Part shown: piece by piece, positions 2,147 to 19,000 of the stretch
How positions within the stretch are numbered: position 1 is the first letter of the stretch
How the letters are laid out: each line of letters begins with the position of its first letter
Source: a virus
DNA: 20,601 nt
IMG/VR virus record: IMGVR_UViG_3300031539_000386
Location: 1 to 20,601 of that record
Direction: 5' to 3' (one strand)
The notes under the pieces: model-generated
Seen by the model: the letters and a program-made list of their open reading frames with translations, nothing else
Database searches by the model: none
What the model was told of the DNA's origin: nothing
Program-made: the position numbers and the translations under genes

Positions 2147-2616
2147 ATATAGGATATTTTGCAGCCTTGGCTGGGGCCGAAACATATTTCGAGGAAGAGC
2201 GGCTAGAGACTGAGGCTTGGGACGATTTAGGGGAATTATCGGGCGATGTCCTGAAGACGAAAGTGTTAAAAATGGCCTACAATCGCGTTTACTATGACCC
2301 ACGATGGAGCTTGCCAACCTATGCGGAGGCTTCGGCGGCGGCTCTGGTTGAATTGGCAAAGGCCAATGCTGAGATGGCATATTATTTGGCCATTCACTTA
2401 GCCGATGAGGATAGGCGAAAAGGATTGCAAGCGCAGGGGGTTATTGAAGCTGGGGTAGTAAAAGAGAAATATTCCGAAGGGTCATTGATGGATATTCCCG
2501 TTCCGCCATTCGTGATAGCGATCCTTGCTCCCTGGTCAACGGCGAAAGCATTCGGCGCCGTCAATGTTGCTAGGGATGAGGAAGAATCTGTCAACACCAA
2601 AGTACATGATTTTTAA
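2143..2616 (+). CDS. Head-tail connector adaptor-like protein (DnaT-like family)
   Basis: This 157-residue protein starts at ATG 2143, overlapping the previous stop as ATGA, with AGGAGAAAGG just upstream as ribosome binding site. It begins AALAGAETYFEEERLETEAWDDL. A helical block follows (LKMAYNRVYYDPRWSLP, then ELAKANAEMAYYLAIHL), and the end is GVVKEKYSEGSLMDIPVPPFVIAILAPWS. The order of 'column' motif, helical bundle, then GVVKEKYSEG and a proline-led final helix is typical of phage head-tail adaptor proteins often annotated as putative DnaT-like. In known phages such adaptors sit under the portal and start the connector. The assignment rests on pattern and position. The name DnaT-like should not be read as a replication role. 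Confidence 0.65.
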   Translation: MNIGYFAALAGAETYFEEERLETEAWDDLGELSGDVLKTKVLKMAYNRVYYDPRWSLPTYAEASAAALVELAKANAEMAYYLAIHLADEDRRKGLQAQGVIEAGVVKEKYSEGSLMDIPVPPFVIAILAPWSTAKAFGAVNVARDEEESVNTKVHDF

Positions 2617-3098
2617 TGGAGGATAAATTGAGAAAGATACTAGCGATTATCACTTTAGGTTTACTGCTTGTGACATTGCCGTTGCTCGCATCTCACCAGA
2701 GGGACAAGTGGTTTCTAGGTACAGCCGTTGATGTAGGCGCTGATGCAACAGTAAGCTATCCCGCCACATTACCTTCTGGGGCTATCGATGTCAGCAAATA
2801 TTCACAATGTTCGCTTACTGTGGTTTTCAGCCGTGCGGCAGGAACGACAGATACGGTTGATGTTGAGATATGGTGTAGTCCTGGTGGTGGAATTTGGTCG
2901 CTACTCAGGCAAACTGCAGGTGAGCCACTTTTGCAGGCTCAAACCGGAACGGATGCCATAACGGGCAACGTGGTTCGGGTGACTTATCTGGTTGAGCTTC
3001 CTGGAATTAAATATCTGCGCCTCGGGAGTGTCGAGAATACCGATAGCTCAAATGCCATAACAGGTTTTAACGTGCTTTGTAGTTTGGGAACGATATAA
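2616..3098 (+). CDS. Small signal-peptide or membrane-anchored protein, unknown function
   Basis: The longest reading is 160 residues from ATG 2616, which shares one base with the previous TAA. An in-frame TTG at 2628 has GGAGGA five bases upstream and would give a product beginning MRKILAIITLGLLLVTLPLLAS, the layout of a normal Sec signal peptide. The ATG has no ribosome binding site of its own, so 2628 may be the true start. The mature part of about 130 residues is predicted beta-rich, ending YLRLGSVENTDSSNAITGFNVLCSLGTI, like a small beta-sandwich. There is no lipobox cysteine after the hydrophobic segment. Exported proteins are unusual among head-connector genes; see the neighbouring large secreted beta-helix gene. 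The function is unknown. Confidence 0.7.
   Translation: MEDKLRKILAIITLGLLLVTLPLLASHQRDKWFLGTAVDVGADATVSYPATLPSGAIDVSKYSQCSLTVVFSRAAGTTDTVDVEIWCSPGGGIWSLLRQTAGEPLLQAQTGTDAITGNVVRVTYLVELPGIKYLRLGSVENTDSSNAITGFNVLCSLGTI
2618..2623 (+). promoter_or_regulatory. Ribosome binding site favouring a TTG start at 2628
   Basis: GGAGGA lies at 2618-2623, inside the first codons of the longest reading of the gene and five to six bases before an in-frame TTG. Used with that TTG it makes a well-spaced start and a cleaner signal peptide (Met-Arg-Lys, then a hydrophobic core). The next gene also begins Met-Arg-Lys before its hydrophobic core. Confidence 0.5.
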
Positions 3099-3104
3099 AG
3101 AAGC

Positions 3105-3128
3105 GGGGGCAAGTAGCCGCTTACCCCC
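3105..3128 (+). other. GC-rich stem-loop in intergenic gap
   Basis: GGGGGCAAG (3105-3113) can pair with CTTACCCCC (3120-3128), nine positions with one C/A mismatch and a six-base loop. It sits in the 55-base gap between two genes, 15 bases before the ribosome binding site AGGAG (3143-3147) of the large beta-helix gene. There is no T-tract after it, so a standard terminator is unlikely. An mRNA processing or stability element is possible. Confidence 0.45.
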
Positions 3129-3153
3129 TGACCTTTCGCTCTAGGAGTTTTTA

Positions 3154-5523
3154 ATGAGAAAAGGCTTTTTCAATCTTAAAACATTTACACTCGGAATACT
3201 ACTCGTATTTCTGTCTATGGGATTTAACTTCCCTCTGGGTAGCGGTGGGGCTGACCAGGCGAACTTCCCCGATATTTATATCGATGGGGCATCAGGTGGA
3301 GATGGCTCTCTGGCAAGCCCCTATACAGCCCTCAGTGATGTTAATTGGACGACAGGAGGGGATAACTCTATATTCGATTACTTAGCTGGTTCTCCAGCGG
3401 CGAGTCCGACTATCCATTTGAAGAAAGCAACCACATGGTTGGAAAGCATGGAGGTGGGGGCATCAGGAACGGCAACATATCCTATAGTCATTACATCGTA
3501 TGATACTGGCGCTGATCCGGTAATAGATGGTAGCGATTTAGTAACCACTTGGACGGCAGCAACTGTGGTGCCTACTATAGATGATGATTTTGAACCAGAT
3601 GGTTCTGCTTCTGGAAATTGGGAAACGGCTGGTGGTGCAGCAGATACGGTTGTATTCAATGGTGGTTTAGCATCAAGGGAATTTGATAAGGTTAGCGAAT
3701 GGCTACAAGAAACTGTTACCACTCCTTACTATTATGCAGATTTTTATTACAGGGTTGACTCTGATAGCGGTACAACCGCCAACCATATTGTAAGGGTTGC
3801 TGGTTGCGAAGGTTCTGCATGGAATGGTGTTAATGGGGTTCAACTTTGGTTAAAATACTCTGGGGGCTATCTTTTATCTTTAGGGCGTGGTGGTGCATTA
3901 TCTGGGGCAACATTCGGTATTTCATCTGATACTTGGTATCATGTTCAATTTGAGATTGATACTGCTACAGACGTAGCGAAATTTTGGGTTGATGGAGATT
4001 TAAAAAGTACGCTTTCTAGCTTGGCATTAACTTCAGATGCACTTAATATAAGAATTGGAAACGCATCCTATAATTCCGGTACTTTTGAAGTAAATGTTGA
4101 TGACGTTAAAGTTTATACATCTGATCCTAATATAGACCTAACTGATGTATGGGAAGCCGCACTTGCTACCGACCCAAGATTGGTTATCTTTGATGATGTT
4201 TATGGGAAACCAAAGACTTCTGTAGTGGCATTGGTAGCTGACGAGGATTGGTATTGGAGCGATGCTCTCGACAAGCTCTATATTTTCTCGGATTCTGACC
4301 CAAACGGAAGAACCATTGAGTCGTATGCTGACACCTTTAATTTCAAGATAGACGGAAAAAGTTATATTACCGTTGAAAATATCAAATTCAGAGTATCTGG
4401 ATGGAATAATATTACGGTTATAGGTGATTCCGATAATATCACATTTGATGGAATCACTACTAATCATGCTTACGTCGCTGGAATCCAAGTTGATACAGAT
4501 GATACGGTTCAAATAAATGATTTAACGATTACAGATAGTACAGTTGCCTTTGCTGGATTGAATGGTATTGATGTGCGAGAGGTAGCCGATTGCCTTATTT
4601 CTGGAAATACTGTCTATAATAATTGTTTGCGTGGGACGGCTTCCACGCATGGCATCAGGGCTTCTAATACCGTTGGGTCTACTTACTTTCCAACAGATAT
4701 TACCATTGAAAACAACACGGTTTATCGGAATGGTTACTTCGCAGATGACACACAATCATCAGCCGCAACTACGGTAGGTAAGGGAATCCATGTAGACGTA
4801 GGTGGAAGTGGTCATATCATACGGTACAATAAAAGTTACAATAACAATTCTTATGGCATCCATGTAGAAATTATTGATGATGCTCAAGTCTATTACAACC
4901 TGTGTTACGGGAACACCAATGCTGGTGCAGCGTGTGGGATTGCGGTAACTGGGCATACGAATTTTACCTTAGATGGAAATTCGGTTTATAACAATGTCTG
5001 TTATGCAAATGACATTGGGATTGGTGCATGGGGGAGTGATTCACTAAATAACGACCAGTTTACGAACAATCTATTCAAAAACAACATTCTCTTTGATAAT
5101 ACCACCAGAGAACTTGTTGCTAAATGGGGGGCTGAGAACGATGGTACGGTTGGAAGCGGAAATGTCTATGTCAATAATTGTTTGGGAGTAGAGGCAGCCA
5201 GCTTTATTGAGTGGGGAGTCGGGGTTTATAAATCCACTTATGACGATTGGGAAACTTCCTATGGTGCAACTACTAATTCAGTAGAAGCAGACCCCCTTAT
5301 GACCGACCCAGCTAATGGTGACTTTACCCTTCAAGCCACATCACCCTGCATAGACGCTGGAGTGGATGTAAGCCTGACGGAGGACTATGTTGGGGCTGGT
5401 CTTGTAGGAGCGCCAGATATAGGTGCATACGAGCTTCAATATTCTATTGCCGAAGGAATAGCCGAGAATGTGTTGATGCGAGTGCTATTGCGAGTGCTTA
5501 TACGGGTGGTTATAAACAGATGA
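3154..5523 (+). CDS. Secreted right-handed beta-helix protein with inserted LamG/lectin-like domain
   Basis: The product is 789 residues; ATG 3154 follows AGGAG with good spacing. Residues 1 to about 34 form a signal peptide (MRKGFFNLK, then a hydrophobic run to LSMGFNF). Residues 40-142 match the start of the two beta-helix modules in the giant tail-tip protein (IYIDGASGGDGSLASPYTALSD...PVIDGS). Residues about 143-325 are an inserted concanavalin A/laminin G-like domain (DDDFEPDGSASGNW..., DTWYHVQFEID, AKFWVDGD, ending VDDVKVYTSDP). A beta-helix with repeated N-N-V/I turns covers about 400-700, and a cap SPCIDAGVDVSLTEDY...PDIGAYE follows. The last residues are an Arg-Val-Leu repeat. Overall it resembles polysaccharide-binding or lyase folds; no catalytic set can be assigned. 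The end overlaps the minor capsid gene as ATGA. The protein may be shown on the host surface or be part of the virion. Confidence 0.75.
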   Translation: MRKGFFNLKTFTLGILLVFLSMGFNFPLGSGGADQANFPDIYIDGASGGDGSLASPYTALSDVNWTTGGDNSIFDYLAGSPAASPTIHLKKATTWLESMEVGASGTATYPIVITSYDTGADPVIDGSDLVTTWTAATVVPTIDDDFEPDGSASGNWETAGGAADTVVFNGGLASREFDKVSEWLQETVTTPYYYADFYYRVDSDSGTTANHIVRVAGCEGSAWNGVNGVQLWLKYSGGYLLSLGRGGALSGATFGISSDTWYHVQFEIDTATDVAKFWVDGDLKSTLSSLALTSDALNIRIGNASYNSGTFEVNVDDVKVYTSDPNIDLTDVWEAALATDPRLVIFDDVYGKPKTSVVALVADEDWYWSDALDKLYIFSDSDPNGRTIESYADTFNFKIDGKSYITVENIKFRVSGWNNITVIGDSDNITFDGITTNHAYVAGIQVDTDDTVQINDLTITDSTVAFAGLNGIDVREVADCLISGNTVYNNCLRGTASTHGIRASNTVGSTYFPTDITIENNTVYRNGYFADDTQSSAATTVGKGIHVDVGGSGHIIRYNKSYNNNSYGIHVEIIDDAQVYYNLCYGNTNAGAACGIAVTGHTNFTLDGNSVYNNVCYANDIGIGAWGSDSLNNDQFTNNLFKNNILFDNTTRELVAKWGAENDGTVGSGNVYVNNCLGVEAASFIEWGVGVYKSTYDDWETSYGATTNSVEADPLMTDPANGDFTLQATSPCIDAGVDVSLTEDYVGAGLVGAPDIGAYELQYSIAEGIAENVLMRVLLRVLIRVVINR

Positions 5524-6365
5524 AACAAGGCGACTTAGAGAGGCTTTATCGTGAGGCGGGGCGATCCCTGCGTTCCGATCTCCTCTCTATCAACCTTGAT
5601 AAATTCAGCGACGATGAGGCAGACATGATAAGGCGGCAAGCAGGGCTGACCGTAGCAGGACTTAATCTAGTTGCAGAGAAATGGACAGGAAGTGCGCTAA
5701 AAGACACAGCAGAAAAAGCTAAAAACAAAACAAGGGTTGCACTCGAGATTCTAGGTAAGAAGCCGAAACGTCCGCAGATAACCGACCCTGGATATAACGC
5801 CAGGATGAAGGCGCTTGAAACACTTATCAAGGCTAATAATTCGATAATGGCAAACGTGGATAAATATCTCAGCGTTGCGCTCGTAGCATCGCATAAGGCC
5901 AGGACGGCGCAGGTGCAGGAGTTCAATTATAGTGAAGCTGCCGAGGAACTGGACGAGATAGCAATGGCGGCTCTGCTGAAGGAGAAAAGCAGGGGCTGGC
6001 TGTCAAAGCAGATAATAGAATTTCTGCGAGCGCTGATAGAGGAAGATGAGTTTATCGAGATAAACGGGCGCATGTATAAGATGAGCAAGTACGCCAAGAT
6101 GGTTGCGCGGACGGAATTGCGGAATGTGCAGACGGCCGCCACACTCGACCTTTGCAAGCAGTACGACAATGATTTAGTGCAAGTTTCAGATCATGGGACA
6201 GATTGCGAAAGTGGTATATGCCAGCAATTTGAGGGAAACATATATTCAATTTCAGGCGCTCATCCAAAATATCCACAACTTGAGGAAACCCCTCCTTATC
6301 ATCCAAATTGCTTGCACTCCATTTTACCAACCTCAGATGAAGCTATCTGGGCCAGGAGTCAGTAG
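5520..6365 (+). CDS. MuF-type minor capsid protein (SPP1 gp7/phage minor capsid 2-like)
   Basis: This 281-residue protein is largely helical over its first 190 residues. The C-terminal MuF-like core contains MVARTELRN around R197-T198-E199, then SDHGTDCESGICQQFEGNIYSISG with cysteines 229 and 234, then PPYHPNCLHSILP around 258-270. The ART...N helix, the paired cysteines and the P-x-H-P-N-C-x-H signature are hallmarks of the head-morphogenesis MuF/minor capsid 2 families. In SPP1-like phages such proteins bind portal or DNA inside the capsid and assist assembly or ejection. It starts at ATG 5520 within the previous stop and ends at TAG 6365, one base into the next gene. A MuF gene is usually next to the portal gene, so its place after the adaptor-like gene and a secreted beta-helix gene is unusual. 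Confidence 0.8.
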   Translation: MKQGDLERLYREAGRSLRSDLLSINLDKFSDDEADMIRRQAGLTVAGLNLVAEKWTGSALKDTAEKAKNKTRVALEILGKKPKRPQITDPGYNARMKALETLIKANNSIMANVDKYLSVALVASHKARTAQVQEFNYSEAAEELDEIAMAALLKEKSRGWLSKQIIEFLRALIEEDEFIEINGRMYKMSKYAKMVARTELRNVQTAATLDLCKQYDNDLVQVSDHGTDCESGICQQFEGNIYSISGAHPKYPQLEETPPYHPNCLHSILPTSDEAIWARSQ

Positions 6366-6694
6366 TGTTGAACGCATACTTAGTGGATGATCTGACAATT
6401 ATTAAATGGAATGGCAATGACGCCTGGAATGAACCCTTATCGGGTACGATTGTACCTGTAAAGGGATATATTGAATGGAAAACAAGGCTTGTTAGAAATC
6501 TGCAAGGCGAAGAGGTTGTTTCAAGTGTAATGATTTATCTGCATAAAAAGATAGATAGGGTCGCCTATCTAGGACGGCCATTGTGCCATGAGGACAGGAT
6601 CCAAATAGGAGATGAGGATTTTGATAGGGCGATTATAGAGATAAAGGCTCCGAAAGACTTTTCGCATCCACACTATGAGGTATATTTGGCATGA
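6365..6694 (+). CDS. Head-tail connector stopper / minor capsid 1-like protein
   Basis: The product is 109 residues. The reading begins with GTG at 6365, overlapping the previous TAG by one base; the adjacent TTG at 6368 is an equally possible start. The sequence is beta-rich. Its most telling part is VKGYIEWKTRLVRNLQGEEVVSSVMIYLHKK in the middle, followed by a loop DRIQIGDEDFDRAIIEI and a final strand HPHYEVYLA. The pattern of a small beta-barrel with 'GEEVVSS' is common to head-tail connector proteins of siphophages (gp16/FII-like stoppers and the minor capsid 1 family), which close the head after DNA packaging. The gene order minor capsid, stopper, neck protein and terminator supports this. 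It overlaps the next gene as ATGA. Confidence 0.7.
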   Translation: MLNAYLVDDLTIIKWNGNDAWNEPLSGTIVPVKGYIEWKTRLVRNLQGEEVVSSVMIYLHKKIDRVAYLGRPLCHEDRIQIGDEDFDRAIIEIKAPKDFSHPHYEVYLA

Positions 6695-7095
6695 GCATGA
6701 CAATTGATTTTAAGGACTTCGAGAAAGGCTTTGCCAAGATTATTGAAAAGGCCTCTAGCGAAGAAGCTGGGAAGGGACTATTCAAAGCAGGAAATGAACT
6801 CTTGCAAGACGCTATAAAGGTTGAACCGATAGCCCCATTTGACGAAGGAACACTCAGGGGATCTGCAAGGACGAATAAAGCAGACATAAAGAAAGGTGAG
6901 ATAACGGTTGAGACTGGATTCAACATTGAATATGCGGCACGCTGGCATGAGCTTACACCGGAGGAGGACAGCAAAATTAGCTGGACGACTCCAGGTTCAG
7001 GCCGGAAATACCTCGAATCCAAGATGGTGAAATTCAAGGATAAGTACATGAAAATCGTGACTAAATCCATTGAAAACGCCTTAAAGGGGAAATAA
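6691..7095 (+). CDS. Neck / tail completion protein (minor capsid 2 / HK97 gp10-like)
   Basis: The product is 134 residues. ATG 6691 overlaps the upstream stop; a second in-frame ATG at 6697 is an alternative. Residues 1-50 are helical (FEKGFAKIIEKASSEEAGKGLFKAG). The central part reads PIAPFDEGTLRGSARTNKADI, then VETGFNIEYAARWHELTPEEDSKISW, then TTPGSGRKYLESKM and a C-terminal helix. The sequence P-x-D-x-G-x-L-R-x-S, then Y-A-x-x-x-H-E, then G-x-K-Y-L-E is the signature of the gp10/minor capsid 2 type of neck proteins, which join the head connector to the tail. Position between stopper and tail terminator agrees. The stop overlaps the next ATG by one base (TAATG). Confidence 0.8.
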   Translation: MSMTIDFKDFEKGFAKIIEKASSEEAGKGLFKAGNELLQDAIKVEPIAPFDEGTLRGSARTNKADIKKGEITVETGFNIEYAARWHELTPEEDSKISWTTPGSGRKYLESKMVKFKDKYMKIVTKSIENALKGK

Positions 7096-7508
7096 TGTTC
7101 AAGGAAATCTGCACGCTTATCAGCACGCTTACAGGCTTTACTATAGGCACACGCCTGCAGGCAGGGCATTGGGAGCAGGATAAGCCTAAACGCTGTGTGC
7201 TTATCTCCGAGTCTGCCGGTGGCGAGACTAATTTCTATTCCCCAGATTTCGCCTTTTTCAACATCCAGGCGCTTGCTAGGGCCGAAACGTACTTCCAGGC
7301 TAGGGAAGATGCCTGGACAGTATATCGTGCCTTACACGGCACGTCAGGCTGGAATATGGCCAATTTTGAACTATCCGGCCCGGACTACCTGGCCATGACT
7401 GTGGAAGCGATAGGACTCCCGGCGTATCTGGGGGTTGATGACAATAGGCGACATTTGTTTACATGCAACTACATCTGGCGCATAGAGGAAGCAACCTGTA
7501 CGGGTTAG
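7095..7508 (+). CDS. Tail terminator protein (minor capsid 3-like)
   Basis: This is a 137-residue alpha/beta protein with ATG 7095 after AAAGGGGAAA. Recognisable parts are an N-terminal helix and GTRLQAGHWEQDKPKRCVLISES, then the mid part YFQAREDAWTVYRALHGTSGW, then the C-terminal LPAYLGVDDNRRHLFTCNYIWRIEE. The pattern 'R..A...Y..LHG', then 'P.YLG.D..G/R.F..NY.WR' is characteristic of small tail-terminator proteins (minor capsid 3 family), which form a hexameric cap on the finished tail tube and interface with the neck. It is the last of four tightly overlapping genes. A 70-base gap with a stem-loop then separates it from the tube gene. Confidence 0.8.
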   Translation: MFKEICTLISTLTGFTIGTRLQAGHWEQDKPKRCVLISESAGGETNFYSPDFAFFNIQALARAETYFQAREDAWTVYRALHGTSGWNMANFELSGPDYLAMTVEAIGLPAYLGVDDNRRHLFTCNYIWRIEEATCTG

Positions 7509-7522
7509 CTTATAAACGGGTA

Positions 7523-7553
7523 ACGGGAAGGGCAGCAATAGCGCTCTTCCCGT
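7523..7553 (+). other. Strong stem-loop between terminator and tail tube genes
   Basis: ACGGGAAGGGC (7523-7533) pairs with GCTCTTCCCGT (7543-7553) over eleven positions with a single G-T pair and a nine-base loop. It lies in the largest gap between genes of the tail cluster, before AGGAGG (7568-7573) of the tube gene. No run of T follows the stem, so an efficient intrinsic terminator is doubtful. Such hairpins ahead of very highly expressed structural genes may protect or process the mRNA; this is inference. Confidence 0.55.
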
Positions 7554-7578
7554 AAGCCCAAAATTTTAGGAGGCAAAA

Positions 7579-8136
7579 ATGCCATCTTTACCAATCGGTG
7601 ATTTAGGTCCTGGCGAAGTCGTGTGGGGCTACGGAGAAAGTGGAGCTCTCAATCTCGGTCCGTCCCTTGGTGGGATAACCCTGAGAATGGACACTACTGT
7701 TCATGATATCAAGACGGATCAGGCTGGAGACGCCGCTGTTGATGCCGCCTTCGGTGGCTCGACTATGGAGCTTGAGGTCATGATGACGCGCTCAACACTC
7801 ATTCAGTTAAACGAGGTTCTTTTGGCTGGAGGCGTAGTTGCATCTGGAGACCACAGTTACATTAAGCTCCTGAATCAGATCGGATGCTCTATGTACGACT
7901 TGGCCAAAGCGCTCGTGATCAAGCCCTACTGCGGAAACGAGATTTCTGACGACCCCGCAGAGTGGATCGAGATTTACAAGTGCTATCCGATTCCGGCGTT
8001 CGACCTGTCCTACACGCCAGACACACAGCGCGTGTTTCCGATCAAGTTCAAGGTATTCGTTTCTCAGGAAAGCGGACAGGAAGGCGAATTCGGGACACTC
8101 GGCATGGAATCTGGCTCAACTGAATTCGGTATCTAA
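7579..8136 (+). CDS. Major tail (tube) protein
   Basis: This 185-residue beta-rich protein has the strongest ribosome binding site in the window (AGGAGG at 7568-7573, five bases before ATG), as expected for an abundant tail protein. It opens PSLPIGDLGPGEVVWGYG, continues THDIKTDQAGDAAVDAAFGGSTMELEVMMTR-like (DQ.G..P/AVD...GG....E.) and ends FPIKFKVFVSQESGQEGEFGTLG. The motif 'D.aG..avD....G..v.....m...' is typical of siphophage tube proteins. They polymerise as stacked hexameric rings around the tape measure. The gene lies directly before the chaperone pair and tape measure, the canonical location. I see no Ig-like extra domain. Confidence 0.85.
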   Translation: MPSLPIGDLGPGEVVWGYGESGALNLGPSLGGITLRMDTTVHDIKTDQAGDAAVDAAFGGSTMELEVMMTRSTLIQLNEVLLAGGVVASGDHSYIKLLNQIGCSMYDLAKALVIKPYCGNEISDDPAEWIEIYKCYPIPAFDLSYTPDTQRVFPIKFKVFVSQESGQEGEFGTLGMESGSTEFGI

Positions 8137-8152
8137 TCCAGGATAGGATGAA

Positions 8153-8470
8153 ATGCCAAAACTAAAGATTGACACGAGTCTATTCGAGCCAATCGAAATC
8201 GAAATTGACGGGACTGTTTACGAATCGAAGCGCCTTACCAGGAATATCTTTCTGGAAATTGAAAGACTTACTAGTGCGGCTGAAGGTGGGAACATTGAGG
8301 CTGGTTACAAAATACTGGAGTTGCTGCTGGGGGAGAAGTGCGTAAAGGTGATTTCAAACCTAGACATTTCCATCGTCAACAAAATCACGAAATTCATCAC
8401 TGACAACGCATCAACCGTGGGGCAAGAAGAAAAAAACGGGCCAACGCCTGGGGACAAAGATTCGCAATAA
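8153..8470 (+). CDS. Tail assembly chaperone, short form (gpG-like)
   Basis: The 105-residue product begins MPKLKIDTSLFEPIEIEIDGTVYESKRL after an AGGATAGGA ribosome binding site. It is mixed alpha/beta with a helical core (FLEIERLTSAAEGGNIEAGYKILELLLG, then ISIVNKITKFITDNAS) and a polar tail. It sits between tube and tape measure genes, where lambda G and its relatives lie. In these phages the short protein and a longer frameshifted form bind the tape measure and recruit tube subunits; neither stays in the mature tail. The gene contains the slippery sequence at 8431-8437, so about the last ten residues are replaced in the frameshift product. Confidence 0.8.
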   Translation: MPKLKIDTSLFEPIEIEIDGTVYESKRLTRNIFLEIERLTSAAEGGNIEAGYKILELLLGEKCVKVISNLDISIVNKITKFITDNASTVGQEEKNGPTPGDKDSQ

Positions 8471-8781
8471 TTGCGAGTGAGTTTCCAGGTCTATTTCGAT
8501 TTCCTGACTTACTGGTGCTCGATTTAAGAGACCAAGAGTTCTGGCTTAAAGAAGCTGGGCGGAAGTCTCTGATGAGAAGGCTAGAGCTCTATCAGGCCGC
8601 GCTATTGCCGAACAGGGAGACAAAGGTTATTCAGCAAGAAATGGACAAACTGAGGGTGCAAATTTTTGAGGCAAACCATGATGGCGAGATAGAGGAGAGA
8701 GAGCGGCAATACGCAGAAAAGGTGTCTAAGGGTTTGCATAAAGCCCCAAGGAAGAAAAAGAAGGTGGTAGGAAATGGCTAA
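8153..8781 (+). CDS. Tail assembly chaperone, -1 frameshift fusion (gpGT-like), join 8153..8437 and 8437..8781
   Basis: Frame 1 is open without a stop from 8404 through the TAA at 8779-8781, overlapping the short chaperone gene. A -1 slip at A AAA AAC (8431-8437) would join residues 1-95 of the short form to 114 further residues, giving 209 residues. The extension reads RANAWGQRFAIIASEFP, then GLFRFPDLLVLDLRDQEFW, then a charged helical part ending RKKKKVVGNG. Read alone, the extension has only a GTG at 8515 without any ribosome binding site, which argues against an independent gene. The end overlaps the tape measure start (8774) by eight bases, as in most siphophages with a G/GT pair. Confidence 0.85.
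8431..8437 (+). promoter_or_regulatory. Programmed -1 ribosomal frameshift slippery site A AAA AAC
   Basis: In the frame of the short chaperone the codons read GAA GAA AAA AAC GGG, so the heptamer A_AAA_AAC fits the X_XXY_YYZ rule. Both tRNAs can re-pair one base back as AAA AAA, and the next codon becomes CGG in frame 1. Frame 1 is open from 8404 to 8781, so the shift yields a long fusion. Confidence 0.85.
8460..8478 (+). promoter_or_regulatory. Stem-loop downstream of slippery site, enclosing the 0-frame stop codon
   Basis: TCGCAA (8462-8467) pairs perfectly with TTGCGA (8471-8476), and flanking A-T and T-G pairs extend the stem to eight. The three-base loop is TAA, the stop codon of the short chaperone. 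The stem begins 22 bases after the slippery heptamer, further than the usual 5-9 base spacer, so its stimulatory role is unproven. Confidence 0.4.
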
Positions 8782-11692
8782 TTTTGGAGGCGGGTTCGTA
8801 GCCGGGTCAATTGTCGGAAAGCTTTTACTTGATAAAAGCGGGTGGAATCAGTCTATCCGTGATGTCGATAAGGACAAAAATAAGCTAAAGGGTACTGTTG
8901 GCCAAATTGGCTCTTCTTTCATGAAGATGTCAAAGATCATCCTTTTGGCAGGAGCCGGGGCTACCAGCGCACTTGTAGCGATGACGAAAAAGACAGCCAC
9001 CGCCGGGGATGAGATTGCAAAGCTATCCAAAAGGGTCGGAATATCCGCAGAAACATTATCTGGTTATGGCCATGCCGCAAAGCTTGGGGGATCATCTTTA
9101 GAGGGATTCGCCGCTGGAGCTCGCCGCCTGTCTTCGGCCATGATGGATACCCAGAACGGTCTCCTGGAGTCAAAGCGTGCGTTTGATTCACTTGGCATAT
9201 CTGTTGCAGATTCAACTGGTCAATTAAGGCCGATGGATGACGTGCTCATGGAGGTTGCCGACAGATTCTCCGAAATGGCAGACGGGACAGCTAAGGCCGC
9301 GCTATCGCAGGATATATTTGGCCGGTCTGGAATGGCTCTTATCCCCATGTTAAACGAAGGCTCTGAGGGACTGAAGCGGCACAGGGAAGAGGCAGAACGA
9401 CTCGGCATTGTTTTTACCGACAAGGCGGCAAAGGCTTCCGAGGAGTTTAATGACAGTATGACCAGGCTGAAAGCTAGCGTGGAGGGAACCTCAAGAGCGT
9501 TGGCCATAGAACTGATGCCAATTATGACTGATATCACGAACCGACTTACCAACTTTATGGTCTCCGTCAAGGATGCAATTACAAAGAACGCCCAAGGAAT
9601 CGCCACGGGTGTATTACAGGCTTTTAAAATAGTGGTTCAAGCTATTGAGGGTGTGATGCTTGCCTTTAATGCCTTGAAGTTGGCTGTCTTTAAAGTAGGC
9701 GAAGCTATAGCGCAAGCCCTCGTAAAACGCTTAATCCCCATTGCTGTCGTTGTGGATGCTCTGGCCAAGAAATTTAGCATACTCAAGGGAACAAGCGATG
9801 CTCTATTTGAGGCGATTAAGAACCTCGTTTGGATCGGGGTGGAGTACCAGGAACAGTCTGATAAATCCCTTGAAACCATGTCCGACATAGTGGGTACATT
9901 TGAAAAACTGCTGGAAGCTGTGGGCAAAATTGGGGATGAGTTCAGTGGAACCGGAAAGAAGATAGGTAAAGATTTTGTCCCAACTCTGGGAACAGTCAAA
10001 AAAACATTAGAGGAAACCGAAGTTTTAATCGCTAAGGATTTTAGTTATGCACTTAAACATGCAACGACATATCTGATCAGGGTACGAGATTATACTGGAA
10101 AATTAAATCGGGAGTTGGAGCTTTCGCGAGAGCATTTCAGAAGGCTTGCCGAAGTCATGGAAACTGATGCGAGTGCGGCATTCTTAACATTTTACAACAC
10201 CCTCCAGCTTGGGCTTAATCTCCTGTTTATGACGCGGGGTGGGCCGAGTTTCCCATTCTTTAAAAGGATAGAGAAGGGAATATTTGATGTGCAGGAACTC
10301 TGGAAAAATATGAATCAGCAGATTGAGGCTGAATGGATACGGGGGATATCCAAACTTGTCACAGCATTTAGCTCATTTCGGGACGCCTTGGCGGGGATAG
10401 CCCAAAACATCCTTACCATATTCGGTGACACTATCGGCATGATTGTTGTGGCATGGGTTAAGGGAACCATTACGATGCAGGCGGCTGTTGAAGGCATCAA
10501 AATGGCGTTGAAAGCTCTTGCTGTTTTTATCATGGTGGACTGGACAAAGAAATTTTTAACATGGGTGGGTATATTAAAGGAGAAAGTTGACCCAGCAATC
10601 CAAGCAATTTTAGACAAGCTGGAAAAAGCAAGGGAAGAAGGAGAGAAGATTTGGGAGCTTATCAATAAGATCCAGCTCAAGCAGGGTGATGGTGGGACGC
10701 CACGAAGGAGCGATAAAACAAGGCAGGGAGAAGACTATAATGACTGGCTAAGGGGAGATTTGGGACAATATATCAGCAAGATTCCTGCGGGACTCAAGTC
10801 TATGATTGAATTCCAAAAGAGTCCGCAAGCCCTTATGCGGATTGGGAGAATTGCAAGGGCAAGTATAGGCATGATGATTAGCCAGGGTTACACGCTTTTT
10901 CAGGCATTAACGGCGCTCAAGGAACCTCTGACCATGCTCCGAGATAAGTATCTGGAGTTGGGGAGGTCGGCCCCTGCGGCTCTTCAACCGATGCTCGACA
11001 TGATAGAGAAGATGGAAAAGCGGCCCAAGCTGTTTGAAGCCATGAGTGGGCTTATGGACGTATTTAACGCCTTCGTTAAATCAGGCTGGATGACCCAAAG
11101 CCTGTTTAAAGATTTAACGGCCGGTGCGCAGGGTTTCGTTAGGCAAATTCTAGGCGTAACGGGAAACCTGAGAAAAGCCATAGGAGACCTTGGCAGTCTT
11201 TCTAAAGAACAGATTATGATGCTTGCCCCAATACTTGTCCCCTTCCTTGAAGCTGCTCAGAAGTTTGGCCTAAAGCTTCCCGCGTGGATTGCAGACCTGG
11301 CAAAAAAGGCTGGCATTAAAATCGAGGAACAGCCAATAGCGAAAGTTCCAGGACTCCTTGAGGATATCCACAAAAGGCTTTTCAATCAAGCAACGCGAAT
11401 AGTTCTAGCCATACGAGGCCTTGGTGCAAAATTCGAGAAAGCCCTGGGAAACATCCCCTCTGGCGCTGGCGGGCTTGATATGTACTCTGGTGATCAGGGT
11501 GGGCTAGTCCGCTATCATCCAAGAGAGCAGGTCTCAATTACCCCCGGTTCTTTCAACATACAAATGGAGTCAACCCCCATTATCGTCAAGATAGGCGAAA
11601 GGGAGATATTCAACGTTGTGGCCAAGCATAGCGTGAAGCAGGGAAAGCGGGGCCGATTTAAGGTATCGACCAGATCGTTGGTGGAAGCATAA
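8774..11692 (+). CDS. Tail tape measure protein
   Basis: At 972 residues this is the longest helical protein here, directly after the chaperone pair with an eight-base overlap. It starts MANFGGGFVAGSIVGKLLLDKSGWNQSIRDVD. A hydrophobic segment at about 54-70 (IILLAGAGATSALVAM) follows. The next part is typical of tape measures: TATAGDEIAKLSKRVGISAETLSGYGHAAKLGGSSLEGF, then RAFDSLGISV, then DIFGRSGMALIPMLNEGSEGL. Another hydrophobic helical region lies near 565-600 (MALKALAVFIMVDW). The C terminus is beta-rich (SFNIQMESTPIIVKIGEREIFNVV), probably the tip-binding end. At roughly 0.15 nm per residue, a known rule of thumb, the tail would be about 145 nm. I see no lysozyme or peptidase motif inside it. 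Confidence 0.9.
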   Translation: MANFGGGFVAGSIVGKLLLDKSGWNQSIRDVDKDKNKLKGTVGQIGSSFMKMSKIILLAGAGATSALVAMTKKTATAGDEIAKLSKRVGISAETLSGYGHAAKLGGSSLEGFAAGARRLSSAMMDTQNGLLESKRAFDSLGISVADSTGQLRPMDDVLMEVADRFSEMADGTAKAALSQDIFGRSGMALIPMLNEGSEGLKRHREEAERLGIVFTDKAAKASEEFNDSMTRLKASVEGTSRALAIELMPIMTDITNRLTNFMVSVKDAITKNAQGIATGVLQAFKIVVQAIEGVMLAFNALKLAVFKVGEAIAQALVKRLIPIAVVVDALAKKFSILKGTSDALFEAIKNLVWIGVEYQEQSDKSLETMSDIVGTFEKLLEAVGKIGDEFSGTGKKIGKDFVPTLGTVKKTLEETEVLIAKDFSYALKHATTYLIRVRDYTGKLNRELELSREHFRRLAEVMETDASAAFLTFYNTLQLGLNLLFMTRGGPSFPFFKRIEKGIFDVQELWKNMNQQIEAEWIRGISKLVTAFSSFRDALAGIAQNILTIFGDTIGMIVVAWVKGTITMQAAVEGIKMALKALAVFIMVDWTKKFLTWVGILKEKVDPAIQAILDKLEKAREEGEKIWELINKIQLKQGDGGTPRRSDKTRQGEDYNDWLRGDLGQYISKIPAGLKSMIEFQKSPQALMRIGRIARASIGMMISQGYTLFQALTALKEPLTMLRDKYLELGRSAPAALQPMLDMIEKMEKRPKLFEAMSGLMDVFNAFVKSGWMTQSLFKDLTAGAQGFVRQILGVTGNLRKAIGDLGSLSKEQIMMLAPILVPFLEAAQKFGLKLPAWIADLAKKAGIKIEEQPIAKVPGLLEDIHKRLFNQATRIVLAIRGLGAKFEKALGNIPSGAGGLDMYSGDQGGLVRYHPREQVSITPGSFNIQMESTPIIVKIGEREIFNVVAKHSVKQGKRGRFKVSTRSLVEA

Positions 11693-11693
11693 A

Positions 11694-12800
11694 ATGGATA
11701 CATTTAAGTTTTTCTATGACAACTTATGGCGTCAGTATACGATAACCGCAACCTCCGAGCATGAGAATTTCCCAATAGAAAAAACACAGCACAGGGATTT
11801 TAACAAACAATGCCGTTCTCAACATGGCGCAGGCTCGGGATGGGGGAATTTCACGATTGCATCAGCAGTTAATGACCGTCTGGACTTTGAAGATAATGGG
11901 ACAACAACTAGGGTTGCCTCCCTTACCCCAGGCGATTATACGGCTGATGAATTAGCCGCCCACATTGAGACGCAAATGGAGGCCTCGGGTACGGCTGATA
12001 CTTTTACAGTCGTATATCTTGAGTTATCCAATAAATTCAAGATAACGGATGATGCAGGGACGTTCGAACTCCTTTGGAATAGCGGGGCGAATAAAACCCG
12101 GTCTATAGCCGATACGATAGGCTTTGACGATTCGGCAGATGATACCGGGGCATCTAATTATACGGCTGATGAGCTGCGGATTCACTCTGAGGAAAGGCAC
12201 ACTACAGACCTGCTTGTCTCAACTGATATCAATGCCATGATTATCAGGGGGCATAATTTCCAATCTACAGCAACGGTTGAGGCGATATTCTCAACTGATG
12301 CCTGGACAACGATAGCGGAGGCCATAGCCTTTACGATCCAGGATAAGATACTTGTCCTCCAATGGGATACCCCAAAGGAATATAGGTATGTGGGATACAG
12401 GATAAAGGATGTTGATAATCCCTATCTCTATGTGGCTGTTGGCGTGCCGTATGTCGGAGGTCAGTTTCAGCCAGATATTAGTTTTACGTCTGATGGTGAT
12501 GTCAACCGGATCGATCCTAGTATTATTCAGGCCTCCGAGTTCGGCCAGGAGTCAAGCATACAGCTAGACCATTTCGATGTTCTTTCATATTCGTTTTATG
12601 TAAATAGCCTGGCCCAGAAAGATTTGTTTGACGCCGTATTTGATGAGGTGGGCTATTCAAAGTCGCTTTTCGTTTGTGAGGATCCCGACCTACCGTTAAG
12701 CACCACAAGATATGTGGCCATAAACGGCTGGCGCTGGACTCCCATAAAACGATCAATCCCATTATGGACTCTATCAATAGAGTTTAGAGAGCAGAGGTAA
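11694..12800 (+). CDS. Distal tail / baseplate protein with inserted 'YTADEL' domain
   Basis: The product is 368 residues, starting one base after the tape measure stop. The first 50 residues (FKFFYDNLWRQYTITATSEHENFPIEKTQHRDF) lead into an inserted domain at about 54-165 (VNDRLDFEDN...TRVASLTPGDYTADELAAHIETQM...TIGFDDSADDTG). That domain is a recurrent small module in phage proteins. After it, HTTDLLVSTDINAMIIRGHNFQSTATVEAIFSTDAW continues a beta-sandwich that was interrupted by the insertion, and the C terminus (ATRYVAINGWRWTP-like, then PLWTLSIEFREQR) is beta-rich. The position between tape measure and hub suits a Dit-like or first tip protein. This is supported by order more than by sequence, and an adhesin role is possible. 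Confidence 0.6.
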   Translation: MDTFKFFYDNLWRQYTITATSEHENFPIEKTQHRDFNKQCRSQHGAGSGWGNFTIASAVNDRLDFEDNGTTTRVASLTPGDYTADELAAHIETQMEASGTADTFTVVYLELSNKFKITDDAGTFELLWNSGANKTRSIADTIGFDDSADDTGASNYTADELRIHSEERHTTDLLVSTDINAMIIRGHNFQSTATVEAIFSTDAWTTIAEAIAFTIQDKILVLQWDTPKEYRYVGYRIKDVDNPYLYVAVGVPYVGGQFQPDISFTSDGDVNRIDPSIIQASEFGQESSIQLDHFDVLSYSFYVNSLAQKDLFDAVFDEVGYSKSLFVCEDPDLPLSTTRYVAINGWRWTPIKRSIPLWTLSIEFREQR

Positions 12801-12802
12801 TT

Positions 12803-13093
12803 ATGGCTAAGACAAAAATGAAACATCCGGTAAGGCTTAGAAGTAATAGCAAGCTTAATAAAACACTTAAAGCCCTAACCGAACAACAGAAGGATAGAGA
12901 TGCTTTAAGGAAAGAGCTTTTTAAAATGGCAAAGAAAGCTCTTAATGAGGAGTTTGGCACATTTGATGAAACCTTTAAGGCTATGCTGATCGAGCATCAA
13001 GTGATGAAAAAGCTGGTTATGGATAGACTTGGGGTCACGCTTGAAGAGTGGAATAAAACATATATCGAAATAAAGGAAGCACAGAAGAAATAA
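12803..13093 (+). CDS. Small lysine-rich helical protein, unknown function
   Basis: This is a 96-residue ORF with ATG at 12803, two bases after the preceding stop, and AGAGG upstream. About a quarter of the residues are lysine or arginine, and nearly all of the chain is predicted helical (LKALTEQQKDRDALRKELFKMAKKALNEEFG, then TFDETFKAMLIEHQVMKKLVMDRLGVTLEEW). There is no membrane segment or cysteine. The next start codon follows its stop immediately. I do not recognise the family. Its place between distal-tail and hub genes suggests a tail-tip assembly or coupling factor. Confidence 0.65.
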   Translation: MAKTKMKHPVRLRSNSKLNKTLKALTEQQKDRDALRKELFKMAKKALNEEFGTFDETFKAMLIEHQVMKKLVMDRLGVTLEEWNKTYIEIKEAQKK

Positions 13094-16000
13094 ATGGCAC
13101 AATACTATTGCAATCCGGCAGCCGATCCTTTAGGAGACGGCACCACCCAGGCCTTAACTGGGCCTAACTGCGCCTGGGATGAATTAGCCGACATCAACGC
13201 CTATCAGGGTAGCCTAAATCCCGGGGATATAGTTTCGCTGGTCAAGGGAGGCGAATGGCGGGAGACCCTTGTTATAACGGCAAGTGGAGGGGGCGCTGGC
13301 ACCCATGTCACATATAACGCCTATGGCGCCGGGGATGATCCCATAATAAACGGTTCCTCTCTGGAGACGGTTTGGGCTCATACCACAGGATATATTTACG
13401 AAAAGACATTTGCCAACAGGCCGATGGTTGTTGTTGAGGATGACACGTTCCTCACTTTCAGACATTGGGCTGGAAGCGTCGCGGCCACATTCGCGGGAGC
13501 TACCCAGGGGTGCTGGACAGAGGACGGCGTAAATACTGCCTATGTTTGGTGTACTGACGATGCCGACCCCGATACTCATACGATGGAAGTGGCGGCCAAG
13601 ACGGGAAACGATAGATATGGAATCTATGGTTTAAATATTAGCTACGTCACAATAGAGAACCTGAAGATTAAGTATGTAACTCTTAATGGTATCCGTATCC
13701 TAGTAAATACGGGAACAGAAACGGATGTTCATCTAGAGAGTGTAGAGATATACAATACTGGTGGAAGTGGGATAGAGTGTGGTGTATCTGGAGCTACTTC
13801 GTGGAATCAGCTCACCGCTGTTACTGTTGATGGATGCACGGTTCATTATAGTCGTAGACATGGAATTATCTTTGCACCGTCTTGCTCAAATGGAGAGATT
13901 AAGAATAACGTAACTCATCATTGTGGATGGGGCGGTACCGGAGTAGGAACTTCTGGGGGACATAATATAAGCCTCTGGAGTGGCAGTTCTTCTACTAATC
14001 CACGAAACAATATCATTGAATACAATACTTCATATAACTGCTTTGAGTCATCTGACGGTTCAGAGGGAACGGGTATCCATGCTGATGATAATACCCAGAA
14101 TTGTACTTTTCGTTATAACATCTCATATAACAACGAAGGATCAGGCTTTTATGATAACGGTTTGAGTGGGAATAAGTGGCACTACCTCATTAGCTATAAT
14201 AATGGTCAGGGAACCCAAAGCCTTTTCAGGGGCGGCCTAACAATTTCATCCGGCAATGGGACTGAGGTTTATAACTGCGTTTTCTACGGCAACTCTCCAG
14301 TAGGAATAGGTCATTATGGGACATCTGTAGGCTATACCCTGAAAAACAACATCCTCTGCCAGAATTCCGTTTATGAGATCAGGTACGGTGTCAACGGACA
14401 GATTGGGCTCGTATCCAATTACAACTGCGTTTATCATCCTGCGGGCGGCAGTTATATGTATGCCGGGTCTAGTAAAGCCTGGGCCGCATGGCAGGCTCTA
14501 GGTTATGATGCCAATTCTATAACCTCTGACCCAAAACTTGTAAATCCTGCTGCGGGTGGGGCTGACAATTTCAAACTTCAATCAGATTCTCCATGCCTAG
14601 ATATAGGGAATGACGTAAGCCTTACGGAAGACTATTGGGGCAATCCTGTTCCTGTCGGGGATGGCGTTGATATAGGCGCTCATGAGTATCCGGCCTCGGG
14701 CGCAGGGGAAGCTATTTATTATGTAGACCCGAATTCGGCGGGGGGAGACGGGACCACTCCAGCGCTTACCGGAGCCAATGCTGCATGGACGGAACTATCC
14801 GACATAACCGGCCTGGTAGCCGGGGATTTTGTTTTACTGAGGAGGGACGAGGTTCATGCGGGGAGCATAACCGTTCCCGTAGATGGTGGAAGCGGATCGA
14901 TTTTAACATTTGGCGCGTACGGCTCTGGGGCAAAGCCTATTATTGATACAGGGGGCGGTGCGCAAACTACTTGGGTAGTGGCTGATGATGTTGTAGCTGA
15001 CACTATGATAGTAAATGGGAAGTTCACGGTCAATACAGATAATTGGCTGGCAGGTGGGGCAGGTTCAAGCATAGCTTGTGTTCTTCCTGATCCTGTACAG
15101 GATGGAAACTGCCTTGAAACGACAACGGGTACAGGCAATTCTACTGCTCAGTCTGATAATATAACAAAAGGAGTTACCCCTGGAGATAAAGTATCAATTA
15201 ACATCTATGTGAAACAAGGTACAGAATCAACATGGAAACTTCTTGTTTGGGATGTGACCAATGCTGCCTGGATTGACTTGGGAACTCCAGCAGAGGCTAC
15301 GGCTGCTTGGGTAAAGAATGCACTTGGGCCATTTACATATCCTGCTCTTTGTGAGTCAATTTTTATTAGGCTTCAGCAGACAAGAGTCGATACCGGAACT
15401 ACTCTTTATTTTGATGAGATTGCTGTCTATAATCCAGCGATATTCAAGAAAACAATAGATCCAGTTCCTTCTGTGCTGAATGAGGATGGTACCCCACTTT
15501 CTTACGTTCCGTGGGATACGGATACGCCTACGACATTTGAGGGGCGGGGCTCTGGGGTTTGGTCGTACAACGGGACAACCGTTTATGTGAGATGCACGGA
15601 TGACGCAGATCCCGACACCCACACCATGACGACAACGGGGCCATACGGCATTGACGGAAACGGTAAGGATTATATTAAGGTTGAAAATATCGATGTAATT
15701 GGCGCCTCGGTAGCCAATATCCTGCTTGATGGAACCGATTGCGAACTGGATGGAATAACAGCCAGAGATGGAGTAGCTATCGGAGTTTTGGTCACAGGGA
15801 ACACCAATATTATCCATGACAGCACGATTAAGGACAATGGTGGGGATGGCCTGTCAATCTCGGGTGACAGCGTTGACTATTATCTGAATCTCATCTACGG
15901 AAACGGGGATGGCGGGGCCATCATCTCGGGTGATTCGGGCGAAGGCTATTATAATAAAATCTACAGCAACACAGGAATCGGCCTCGAGATAAGCGGAGCA

Positions 16001-19000
16001 TCGAATAAGGCCTATTACAGCCTGATCTATGGAAACGGAAGTGATAATGTCAAGGTTCTTACGGGGGCTTCAAACGAACTTTACAATCTGATTTCCGAGG
16101 GAGCTGGGGGGCACGGATTTAATATTGACGAATCCTGTATTCTTCGGAATTGCATAGAGAGGAATTCTACTGGAGATTCCATAAATATCGACACTGGCAA
16201 AACAGTTACCGGAGGCTATAACTGCTTTGAGGATGCGGCCAAAGCCGGAGCTGGAACTTATACTGATACCGGAACATCAACACTGTTTGATACCGATCCC
16301 TTATTTACCGACATCGGAAGTAAGGTTTTCACTCTTCAATTGGGTTCGCCCTCTATTGATACTGGGTTAGATGTTGGCCTGACTGAGGACATTATTGGCA
16401 CGTCTGTCCCGCAGGGAGCGGGCGTCGATATGGGGGCTTATGAGTTCACCGGCTCCCAGGCAGAAACCGGAATGGGTGTCAGCGAATCAACCCCTGTCAT
16501 ATCCAGGGTATCAGAATTTGGGCAGTTCGACGACTGGGAAAAGCTGATAGTTTTCGAACATGAGTTGGGCCGGAAACTTCATGAGGAGCCCTGGACGCAG
16601 GGCGAGTCGGGCGTTACAAACACCTGGTATATCGACCTGCCTGACAATGGCGAGATTACAAAAGTCGAAGAGGATGGGGAAGTCTACAATGAGGTGTTTT
16701 CTGTTGCCGCCTGCCATGCCACCCCTTCGACATTCTATTATGATGACTTGAATAAGCGTCTTTACGTTCACACATCAGGTTCGGATTCTCCCGAATCACT
16801 GTCTGGCACTCAATATAATATCGTAGCTTTCTGGTGGGAATACATCTCGAACAGGCCATACCAGTTTGAGCCATACGAGGATTTACTGAAAGAGGCAAAT
16901 GGGACTTTGGAATTCTGGGATTCTGATACTGTGGCCGAAAACTGGACAACAACCGTTTATGACACTTCAACCATCACCAAAGAAGGTACAAATGTTTATG
17001 GCGAACATTCAGCATATTCGGTAAAGCTTACCGGTGATGCCGGAGGCGACGCCTGCCTTATATCGCGTGACGATATAGTGCTGAGACCCGGGCGCAGGGC
17101 CAGGATACGGTTCAAGCATTTTGAGTCTGCAAGCGGAAAAACCATTAAGGTTAGGCTCAAGGATACGGGAAGCAACGTCTATCTCAATAGCAATGGAAAC
17201 TGGGAGACAGCCTTAACATGGATTCCCATTTCAAGTGCGACAGATTGGATGGAAGTAGACATAGATTTTATCGCTCACAAAGATTACAGCTCGTATGAAT
17301 TCTTTGTTGTTAGCAATGCTCTGACAAGCGCCTCCGCCTATGTCGATGATATTGAAATATGGCGATTCAGGCGAGAGATCGATTGCCATGTTTTCCTTCC
17401 CACGAATGCTCTTCCTGTCATATCCCAGGCAGTAGGAGATTATTACCAGCCTGACGAGCAAATCAATTATGGATCAATAATATTGAATAACGCCTCGGGC
17501 TATTATTGGACAAGGCGAGCCCCGCAAGGTTATCTCTGGCATAATAATCCGGCAAGCTTGAAAGCTGGGAAAAAGGGGGATGATTATGATGAGTTGGTTT
17601 ATTTCTTTGTCGGAATAACGAAAGACCCCATTTGGGGAAAGACCGTTATAATAGATATTGAAGATGAAAGGGTTTTGCTAAAAAAAATCCCCATAGATAT
17701 TTTAGATGAATCCACTTACCCGGCCTGCGAAACTGAATGGCGCAACAAAAAAAAGCCAATCCTTCTAGGTCGTGTTGAGGATATAAAGCCTCCCGAGATT
17801 GATACGAATACGCATAAATTCAAGATAAGTCAAACCTATTTTAACCGGGAGGTGGATAGAGTTGACTATTTGGATGATGATTGCTCAAGTTTGGCTGCCT
17901 GGACGGACGCGAGTACAGGTCAAGGACGTATGTATGCTGTCGAGTATGACGATAAAGAATGCTTTGAATTTTACGTTGCCACTGATGGCACTCCAGCAAC
18001 AGCCTACGCTAGAATCCACAGAACCCTCGCTACCGGGCTGCCATCGGATTATACGATAGAGATAAAACTGTATAGAAAGCTCTCTTGGGCGGATCGCTCC
18101 GATCCGAGATGCTATTTTATTGAGGCATGGAATGGAATATTCAGGCTTTATGTTTCTATCGATTCTGATGAAATAGAAGTCTATGACGGAGCCGGATGGA
18201 ATTCAACGCCCCTTAGCTGGGCGGGCAATGTTTGGACAACATTTAGGCTTGAGGTTGACGGGGGGGCTCAGACTGTAGATGTTTATGTGGATGGCGTATT
18301 GGTGGTCAATGCGGCCGATTGCTCGGATACCGATGCCACAAGTGACGGAAAGGTTCAACTGACTTTAGCCGGTGATGAGACCGCATATATCCGGGCCTAT
18401 ACAGATTGGATTAAAATTTATTATGAAAATGTTATTACGGCTGGTCTAAATGCTCCCCTTCAAGAGATTCAGGCCGTATATCAGACGACAGGAGCGGGCG
18501 TAAAAAGCACATTAACAGAGGGCGTAGATTATACGACAGATTTGACAAATGGTGAATTTACGGTAAGTGCGGCTATTGCAGAGGGAGATATTATCACTTG
18601 TGATACCTTGGGGATAAAAATTGATTTTGAAACTGGCGATTATTCGGTTTTGGTAGCTGATTTTCTCTACTTCTTATATGTCACTTTAAATGGCAGATCC
18701 AAATATGGCTTGGATATAGCCTCGCTTATTGATCTCAAAGAAAACAGATTGATTGAATGTGGCGTGTGGCTTGCTGAGGAAGTAGACTCAATAGATGAGC
18801 TTATAAAATGGAAGAAATCGAATGTTTTTCAAACCATTTCCAGGCTCGATGGGTTGATTCATTTTCACAGATATGAGGAGAGCGTGCCAGAGGATTCCCC
18901 ACATTACCGAGTGGAGGATTATATTAAAGCTCCTGATTTTCATGAGGATACTGGCCAGTGTTTCAAAACCGTTGTTGGGCGAAGTCATTATCTCCCCTAT

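What the first reader, a model, noticed from the sequence alone, without database searches (positions are those of the whole stretch)
3580..15440. Different binding domains plugged into the same site of paralogous beta-helices
After the shared strand ...DPVIDGS/KPIIDTG/DPIINGS-x-x-x-x-W, the secreted protein carries a LamG/lectin-like domain (residues about 143-325), module 2 of the giant protein carries a CBM-like domain (about 640-782), and module 1 carries nothing and goes straight on to its next strand. After the insert all three resume with a similar strand and D-rich loop. One fixed socket with exchangeable specificity domains would be an efficient way to change receptor range.
Basis: partly seen in the sequence, partly recalled or inferred. 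Interest (0 to 1): 0.68.

Follow-up and report, generated by a model that had tools for sequence, protein, structure and literature searches.

The report
Exchangeable plug-in domains on phage beta-helices
Proteins of an uncultivated phage and its relatives share one fixed attachment point near the start of a beta-helix where sugar-binding-type domains of at least six kinds, or none, are plugged in, and close relatives show that these domains have been exchanged many times, probably to change what the proteins bind.

Summary
Observation confirmed. Profiles built without the window recognise the cap and the post-socket strand in all three units (E 3e-14 or better). The P1 insert is Laminin_G_3 and the module-2 insert CBM_4_9, both above Pfam cut-offs; module 1 has about 6 residues there. 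AlphaFold models put both inserts between equivalent strands of the same coil.

The proposed refutation (the insert never varies) fails. Of 70 distinct sockets, nearly all in viral contigs, 26 are empty and 44 hold 158-264 residues of at least six sequence families. Cargo is only weakly linked to cap or helix phylogeny (34 and 31 minimum changes; 39 when shuffled). In several pairs, DNA identity of 80-91% stops at the socket and resumes only near the C-terminus, so often the whole body is exchanged, not just the insert.

A syntenic sister phage has one module with ConA-like cargo where the window has two (empty, CBM), and differs at two further sites of the giant protein. It lacks the P1 cassette altogether, so "receptor range" fits the giant, not necessarily leader-bearing P1.

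Similar insertions exist in cellular GH141 and GH120 enzymes; mosaic phage receptor-binding proteins are known. Binding is untested.

The parts
3154..5523 (+). P1: 789-aa beta-helix protein with hydrophobic leader
   Evidence: ORF; Beta_helix PF13229 over cut-off; AF2 model pLDDT 84.6, pTM 0.82; leader by hydropathy
3259..3552 (+). P1 N-terminal cap (aa 36-133), ends PVIDGS...W
   Evidence: leave-window-out cap HMM E 1.2e-19
3553..4146 (+). P1 socket insert (aa 134-331), LamG/ConA-like
   Evidence: Laminin_G_3 E 1e-6 over cut-off; separate beta domain in the model
4147..4449 (+). P1 post-socket strand and D-rich segment (aa 332-432)
   Evidence: leave-window-out post HMM E 3.6e-26
5275..5433 (+). 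P1 C-terminal anchor (DPLMTDPxxxDFTLQ...DIGAYE, aa 708-760)
   Evidence: conserved across family; second stretch of DNA identity in mosaic pairs
2617..5519 (+). Cassette of two leader-bearing genes (2616-3098 and P1), absent from the sister phage
   Evidence: window 2274-2618 and 5520-7573 abut in L193
13094..19378 (+). Giant 2094-aa protein: M1, M2 and a C-terminal tail-region part
   Evidence: ORF; gene follows tape measure gene and its neighbour
13097..13375 (+). M1 cap (aa 2-94)
   Evidence: leave-window-out cap HMM E 2.2e-20
13376..13390 (+). M1 empty socket (aa 95-99)
   Evidence: alignment; gap of 11 model positions, as in 25 other empty sockets
13391..14704 (+). M1 post-socket segment and helix (aa 100-537)
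   Evidence: post HMM E 5.6e-16; 51% identical to the body of L119, which carries a CBM
14714..14974 (+). M2 cap (aa 541-627)
   Evidence: leave-window-out cap HMM E 4.8e-18
14975..15439 (+). M2 socket insert (aa 628-782), CBM_4_9-like
   Evidence: CBM_4_9 E 1e-5, just over cut-off; Foldseek partner CBM4 1gui, E 0.01
15440..16447 (+). M2 post-socket segment and helix (aa 783-1118)
   Evidence: post HMM E 2.6e-14; AF2 model of M2
16916..17368 (+). CBM_4_9-like domain in the giant's C-terminal part (aa 1275-1425)
   Evidence: E 5e-4, below cut-off; homologous to the socket cargo of L032, E 1e-18; absent in L189 and L190
17843..18442 (+). LamG-like domain inserted in the giant's C-terminal part (aa 1584-1783)
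   Evidence: Laminin_G_3 E 1e-3, below cut-off; absent in the sister phage and in L119 and L188

Best explanation
The N-terminal cap of this beta-helix family ends in a loop (after PxIxGs...W) that tolerates a whole extra domain. Phages use that loop as a socket: it is empty or holds one of at least six kinds of domain (ConA/LamG-like, CBM_4_9-like, choice-of-anchor-R-like, a DNRLRE-like type and two unnamed families). Shown here: same coil, varied cargo, repeated change of cargo, and DNA breakpoints at the socket. Inferred: recombination between conserved caps and conserved C-terminal anchors swaps the body, sometimes the cargo alone; the cargo adds or changes carbohydrate binding, which helps the giant tail-region protein adhere to its host and gives the probably exported P1 its own target. 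Whether the helix is an enzyme or a passive arm is open.
For: Leave-window-out profiles; Pfam hits of both inserts; equivalent flanking strands in two models; 70 sockets, 26 empty and 44 filled in at least six families; 34 and 31 minimum changes of cargo on cap and body trees against 39 when shuffled; caps of L007 (empty), L115 (anchor-R-like) and L122 (family F) 90-93% identical with DNA identity ending within 2 nt of the socket; four-fold sites agree more in cap than in body, e.g. 35/42 against 13/36, p 2e-5; syntenic sister phage G040 with ConA-like cargo in one module instead of empty plus CBM; M1 (empty) and L119 (CBM) share one body at 51% identity, 99% support.
Against: No binding data. 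No pair with more than 60% identical post-socket segments carries different cargo, so cargo-only exchange is not caught in the act. The cap tree has few columns and many unresolved forks. A control pair with one history also has somewhat more conserved caps (p 0.06). P1 is probably not a virion part. The M2 insert is modelled with low confidence.
Confidence: 0.7

Rival explanations
1. The insert is part of an enzyme rather than a specificity adapter: as in GH120 XylC and GH141 BT1002, an inserted beta-sandwich shapes the active site of the helix, and different inserts go with different substrates.
For: Closest solved relatives are glycoside hydrolases: GH136, GH120, GH141; BT1002 and XylC carry an inserted beta-sandwich, and in XylC both domains form the active site (PMC6887791).
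Against: No Asp, Glu or His column reaches 55% conservation in the helix coils of the 57-sequence alignment (P1 aa 405-670); 26 sockets are empty; cargo families change independently of body phylogeny. A shared active site could still exist in subgroups.
Confidence: 0.2
2. One ancestral inserted domain diverged beyond recognition and was lost in some lines; nothing was exchanged.
For: GH120 and GH141 already have a beta-sandwich insertion; all cargo families are of similar length; family F, C and DNRLRE-like types have no model hit.
Against: Cargo families hit different curated models and are not joined by iterated profile search; caps over 90% identical carry three different states; sharp DNA boundaries at the socket.
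Confidence: 0.05
3. Whole-gene-body exchange only: the cap is a conserved N-terminal handle and everything after it is replaced as one block; the socket is just where the cap ends.
For: In all pairs with readable DNA homology the body after the socket is also different; some caps are followed by quite different bodies (L024).
Against: Body segments are homologous across different cargo; M1 and L119 share a body but not cargo; the sister giant keeps its C-terminal part at 57-60% identity.
Confidence: 0.25

Closest known systems
GH141 BT1002 (PDB 5MQP) and GH120 XylC (PDB 3VST)
   Same: Right-handed beta-helix interrupted near its start by a beta-sandwich: BT1002 catalytic domain 1-108 and 296-619 with beta-sandwich 109-295 (PMC10154630); XylC helix intervened by an Ig-like beta-sandwich (PMC6887791). 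BT1002 is the best Foldseek partner of P1 (E 5e-10).
   Different: Cellular enzymes with one fixed insert; here the insert differs or is absent among close relatives. Residue-level equivalence of the insertion point was not checked.
GH136 lacto-N-biosidases (PDB 5GQC, 7V6M, 6KQS)
   Same: Closest solved sequences: whole-family profile E 1e-40, cap alone E 3e-16.
   Different: No inserted domain at the socket in the aligned structures' sequences; no shared catalytic acid seen in the phage family as a whole.
Evolved Dit proteins of siphophages
   Same: Carbohydrate-binding modules inserted in loops of a tail protein, present or absent among relatives (PMC7291167, PMC6669499).
   Different: Scaffold is a galectin-type Dit ring protein and the modules are mostly of one fold; here the scaffold is a beta-helix and at least six families occur.
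Mosaic phage tail fibres and tailspikes
   Same: Conserved N-terminal part followed by exchanged receptor-binding or pectin-lyase-like parts (PMC10684548).
   Different: Here the variable domain lies inside the protein with homologous scaffold on both sides, besides the exchange of whole bodies.

Membership tests
Right-handed beta-helix proteins (Pfam Beta_helix) | Profile match over the curated cut-off | tested here: met
   P1 37.5 bits, giant 63.9 bits, cut-off 25.9
GH136 / GH120 / GH141 glycoside hydrolases | Sequence relationship including the cap | tested here: met
   GH136 E 1e-40, GH120 E 1.4e-17, GH141 E 2e-5 with the family profile; cap matched in GH136 and weakly in GH120
GH136 / GH120 / GH141 glycoside hydrolases | Conserved catalytic acids in the helix | tested here: inconclusive
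   No D/E/H column at 55% or more in the helix coils of A4; subgroups were not examined
GH136 / GH120 / GH141 glycoside hydrolases | Glycan cleavage | not testable with these tools
   needs an assay
Evolved Dit | Dit galectin/ring scaffold | tested here: not met
   Scaffold of the socket is a beta-helix
Mosaic phage receptor-binding protein | Near-identical N-terminal part with non-homologous continuation in relatives | tested here: met
   L007/L115/L122 and L008/L009
Mosaic phage receptor-binding protein | Located in the virion tail and binds the host | not testable with these tools
   Giant follows the tape measure gene and its neighbour in window and sister; no binding or virion data
Phage moron / accessory cassette (P1) | Extra gene between conserved genes, absent from a close relative with a clean junction | tested here: met
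   Window 2617-5519 missing in the sister phage, flanks abut

The most novel reading that the evidence does not exclude
A conserved beta-helix cap acts as a general, previously undescribed plug-in platform in environmental phages: cap and C-terminal anchor serve as recombination handles, one pool of ConA-like, CBM_4_9-like and anchor-R-like domains circulates between the helix socket and sites in a tail protein, and exported copies carry the same kinds of cargo outside the virion.
Probability: 0.4. Interest if true: 0.68.

Novelty: new variant of a known kind. Interest (0 to 1): 0.58.

Why it matters
It gives a defined insertion point with many natural cargo variants, an empty state, and a syntenic sister phage with different cargo, so the question whether inserted lectin-like domains set phage adhesion can be tested domain by domain. 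It also gives a sequence rule (cap, PxIxGs...W, post-socket strand) for finding candidate binding domains of unknown family, such as families F and C, in environmental phages.

Tried and rejected
Single-protein viral scans with M1 and with the giant's C-terminal part found no relatives, and tblastn of P1 and of the giant against GenBank phages found none; alignment-based scans were needed. phmmer of P1 and the giant against PDB found nothing. Structure prediction of M1 and M2 together was dropped because all homologues aligned to M1. A weak tail-tube hit in P1 (E 7e-4, below cut-off) lies on the helix and was set aside as spurious. Foldseek hits of the P1 model to clostridial neurotoxin binding domains reflect the shared ConA-like jelly roll only and say nothing about function. 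Families D, G and the L102 type, first counted apart, were merged as choice-of-anchor-R-like (only L115 is above the cut-off). Gaps of 87-144 aa in L044, L154, L156 and L163 are variants of the post-socket segment and were not counted as cargo. The end of DNA identity at the socket is partly forced in pairs with different cargo, so the weight rests on the near-identical caps with saturated bodies, not on the count of pairs.

Full report
What is in the window. The window is a 20.6-kb record of an uncultivated tailed phage with head, neck and tape-measure genes. P1 (3154-5523) and the giant protein (13094-19378) carry right-handed beta-helices. P1 has one helix unit; the giant has two (M1, M2) followed by a C-terminal part of about 960 residues.

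Observation. The three units align through an N-terminal cap ending in PxIxGs...W and again through a strand with a D-rich loop. Profiles built only from other sequences find both elements in all three units with E-values from 3e-14 to 4e-26. Between them lie about 198 residues in P1, 6 in M1 and 155 in M2. The P1 insert is Laminin_G_3 and the M2 insert CBM_4_9, each above the Pfam cut-off, the latter only just.

Same coil. AlphaFold2 models of P1 (pLDDT 84.6) and M2 (79.8) place each insert as a separate beta-rich stretch between a strand at P1 123-125 / M2 616-618 (giant numbering) and one at P1 332-336 / M2 783-786, which are equivalent in the sequence alignment. The M2 insert itself is modelled with low confidence, but a CBM4 (1gui) is among its Foldseek partners (E 0.01). 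M1 was not modelled; its empty state rests on sequence.

Survey. Three alignment-based scans of viral contigs, two of them with the cap alone so that cargo could not bias them, and one of bacterial genomes were made. In 70 distinct units with both cap and post-socket segment (all but L045 and L060 from viral records) the gap is bimodal: 26 empty (10-19 positions) and 44 filled (158-264). Cargo falls into ConA/LamG-like (18), CBM_4_9-like (7), family F (7, unnamed), choice-of-anchor-R-like (6), family C (4, unnamed) and a DNRLRE-like type (2; that name is my recognition, no model hit). Some members are assigned by linkage rather than by a Pfam hit over cut-off.

Exchange. On a tree of caps the cargo state needs at least 34 changes (39 when shuffled), on a tree of helix bodies 31 (39). 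The cap tree has few columns, so the number is soft; well-supported branches alone still force several changes for most types. L007 (empty), L115 (anchor-R-like) and L122 (family F) have caps 90-93% identical in protein and 80-87% in DNA; identity stops within 2 nt of the socket, and strong DNA similarity returns only near the C-terminus. L008 and L009 show the same, with 90-91% in the cap and 95% at the C-terminus. Four-fold degenerate sites agree more in the cap than in the body (35/42 against 13/36, p 2e-5, for L008/L009), which points to recombination rather than protein constraint alone, although a control pair with a single history leans the same way (p 0.06).

What is exchanged. In those pairs the helix body differs as well, so the unit moved is often everything between cap and C-terminal anchor. 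Evidence that cargo also changes on a retained body: M1 (empty) and L119 (CBM) share a body at 51% identity with 99% support, while L119's cap and CBM resemble M2 (45%) and its helix resembles M1 (46%).

Sister phage. G040 (the contig of L128) is syntenic: most genes along the window are about 60-93% identical. Its giant's C-terminal part is 57-60% identical, but it has one helix module with ConA-like cargo instead of M1 (empty) plus M2 (CBM). Within the C-terminal part it has an extra anchor-R-like domain between window residues 1274 and 1282 (below that model's cut-off) and lacks the LamG-like domain 1584-1783. The CBM in that part is homologous to the socket cargo of another phage (L032, E 1e-18), so related domains appear at both kinds of site.

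P1. The sister lacks P1 and the preceding small gene: window positions 2618 and 5520 abut exactly there. P1 has a hydrophobic leader, as do 15 of 50 socket proteins whose cap is N-terminal. P1 is therefore probably an exported accessory protein, not a tail part, and 'receptor range' need not apply to it.

Known relatives. By sequence the closest solved families are GH136, GH120 and GH141. BT1002 (GH141) has a beta-sandwich at residues 109-295 inserted in its helix domain (PMC10154630), and XylC (GH120) a similar interruption (PMC6887791). The insertion is thus not a phage invention. Evolved Dits (PMC7291167, PMC6669499) and mosaic receptor-binding proteins (PMC10684548) are functional analogues. 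New here, as far as this search shows, are the variety of cargo at one beta-helix socket and the natural series of empty, filled and exchanged forms.

Mechanism. Shown: a common socket, varied cargo, breakpoints at the socket, different cargo in closely related phages. Inferred: the cargo binds glycans, and this affects adhesion of the giant and the target of P1. Not tested: binding, enzyme activity, host.

Noticed in passing
window 2617-5519: A 2.9-kb cassette of two leader-bearing genes (2616-3098 and P1) sits between two head genes and is cleanly absent from the sister phage (L193).
   Followed up: yes
window 641-2146: Third protein with C-terminal repeats (LAVxxxxHxHxxDxxxL type); the sister phage keeps the repeats (about 40% identity) but has an unrelated N-terminal domain, so it is mosaic too.
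   Followed up: partly
window 16664-16795: Giant aa 1191-1234 weakly resembles the post-socket segment (E 0.002), also in the giants of L186 and L187; the C-terminal part may contain a relic of that subdomain.
   Followed up: no
L032 5851-8304: Protein with cap, CBM_4_9-like cargo and post-socket segment, then a calcineurin-like phosphoesterase domain (E 9e-9) in place of most of the helix.
   Followed up: no
L024 5438-6637: A cap close to P1's followed by a body without post-socket segment but with repeats of the form ALTGDIGNLPAGLTG.
   Followed up: no
L045 3966-6890: Acidobacteriaceae metagenome bin: GH18 domain fused to a socketed beta-helix with filled socket; whether it is a prophage was not examined.
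   Followed up: no
L188 695-4915: Relative of the giant's C-terminal part without helix modules; it has about 420 extra residues with a glycine-rich domain (PF21722, E 2e-23) inside the region of the CBM.
   Followed up: partly
window 19394-20452: Gene after the giant, 72% identical in the sister phage, without a family hit over cut-off.
   Followed up: no
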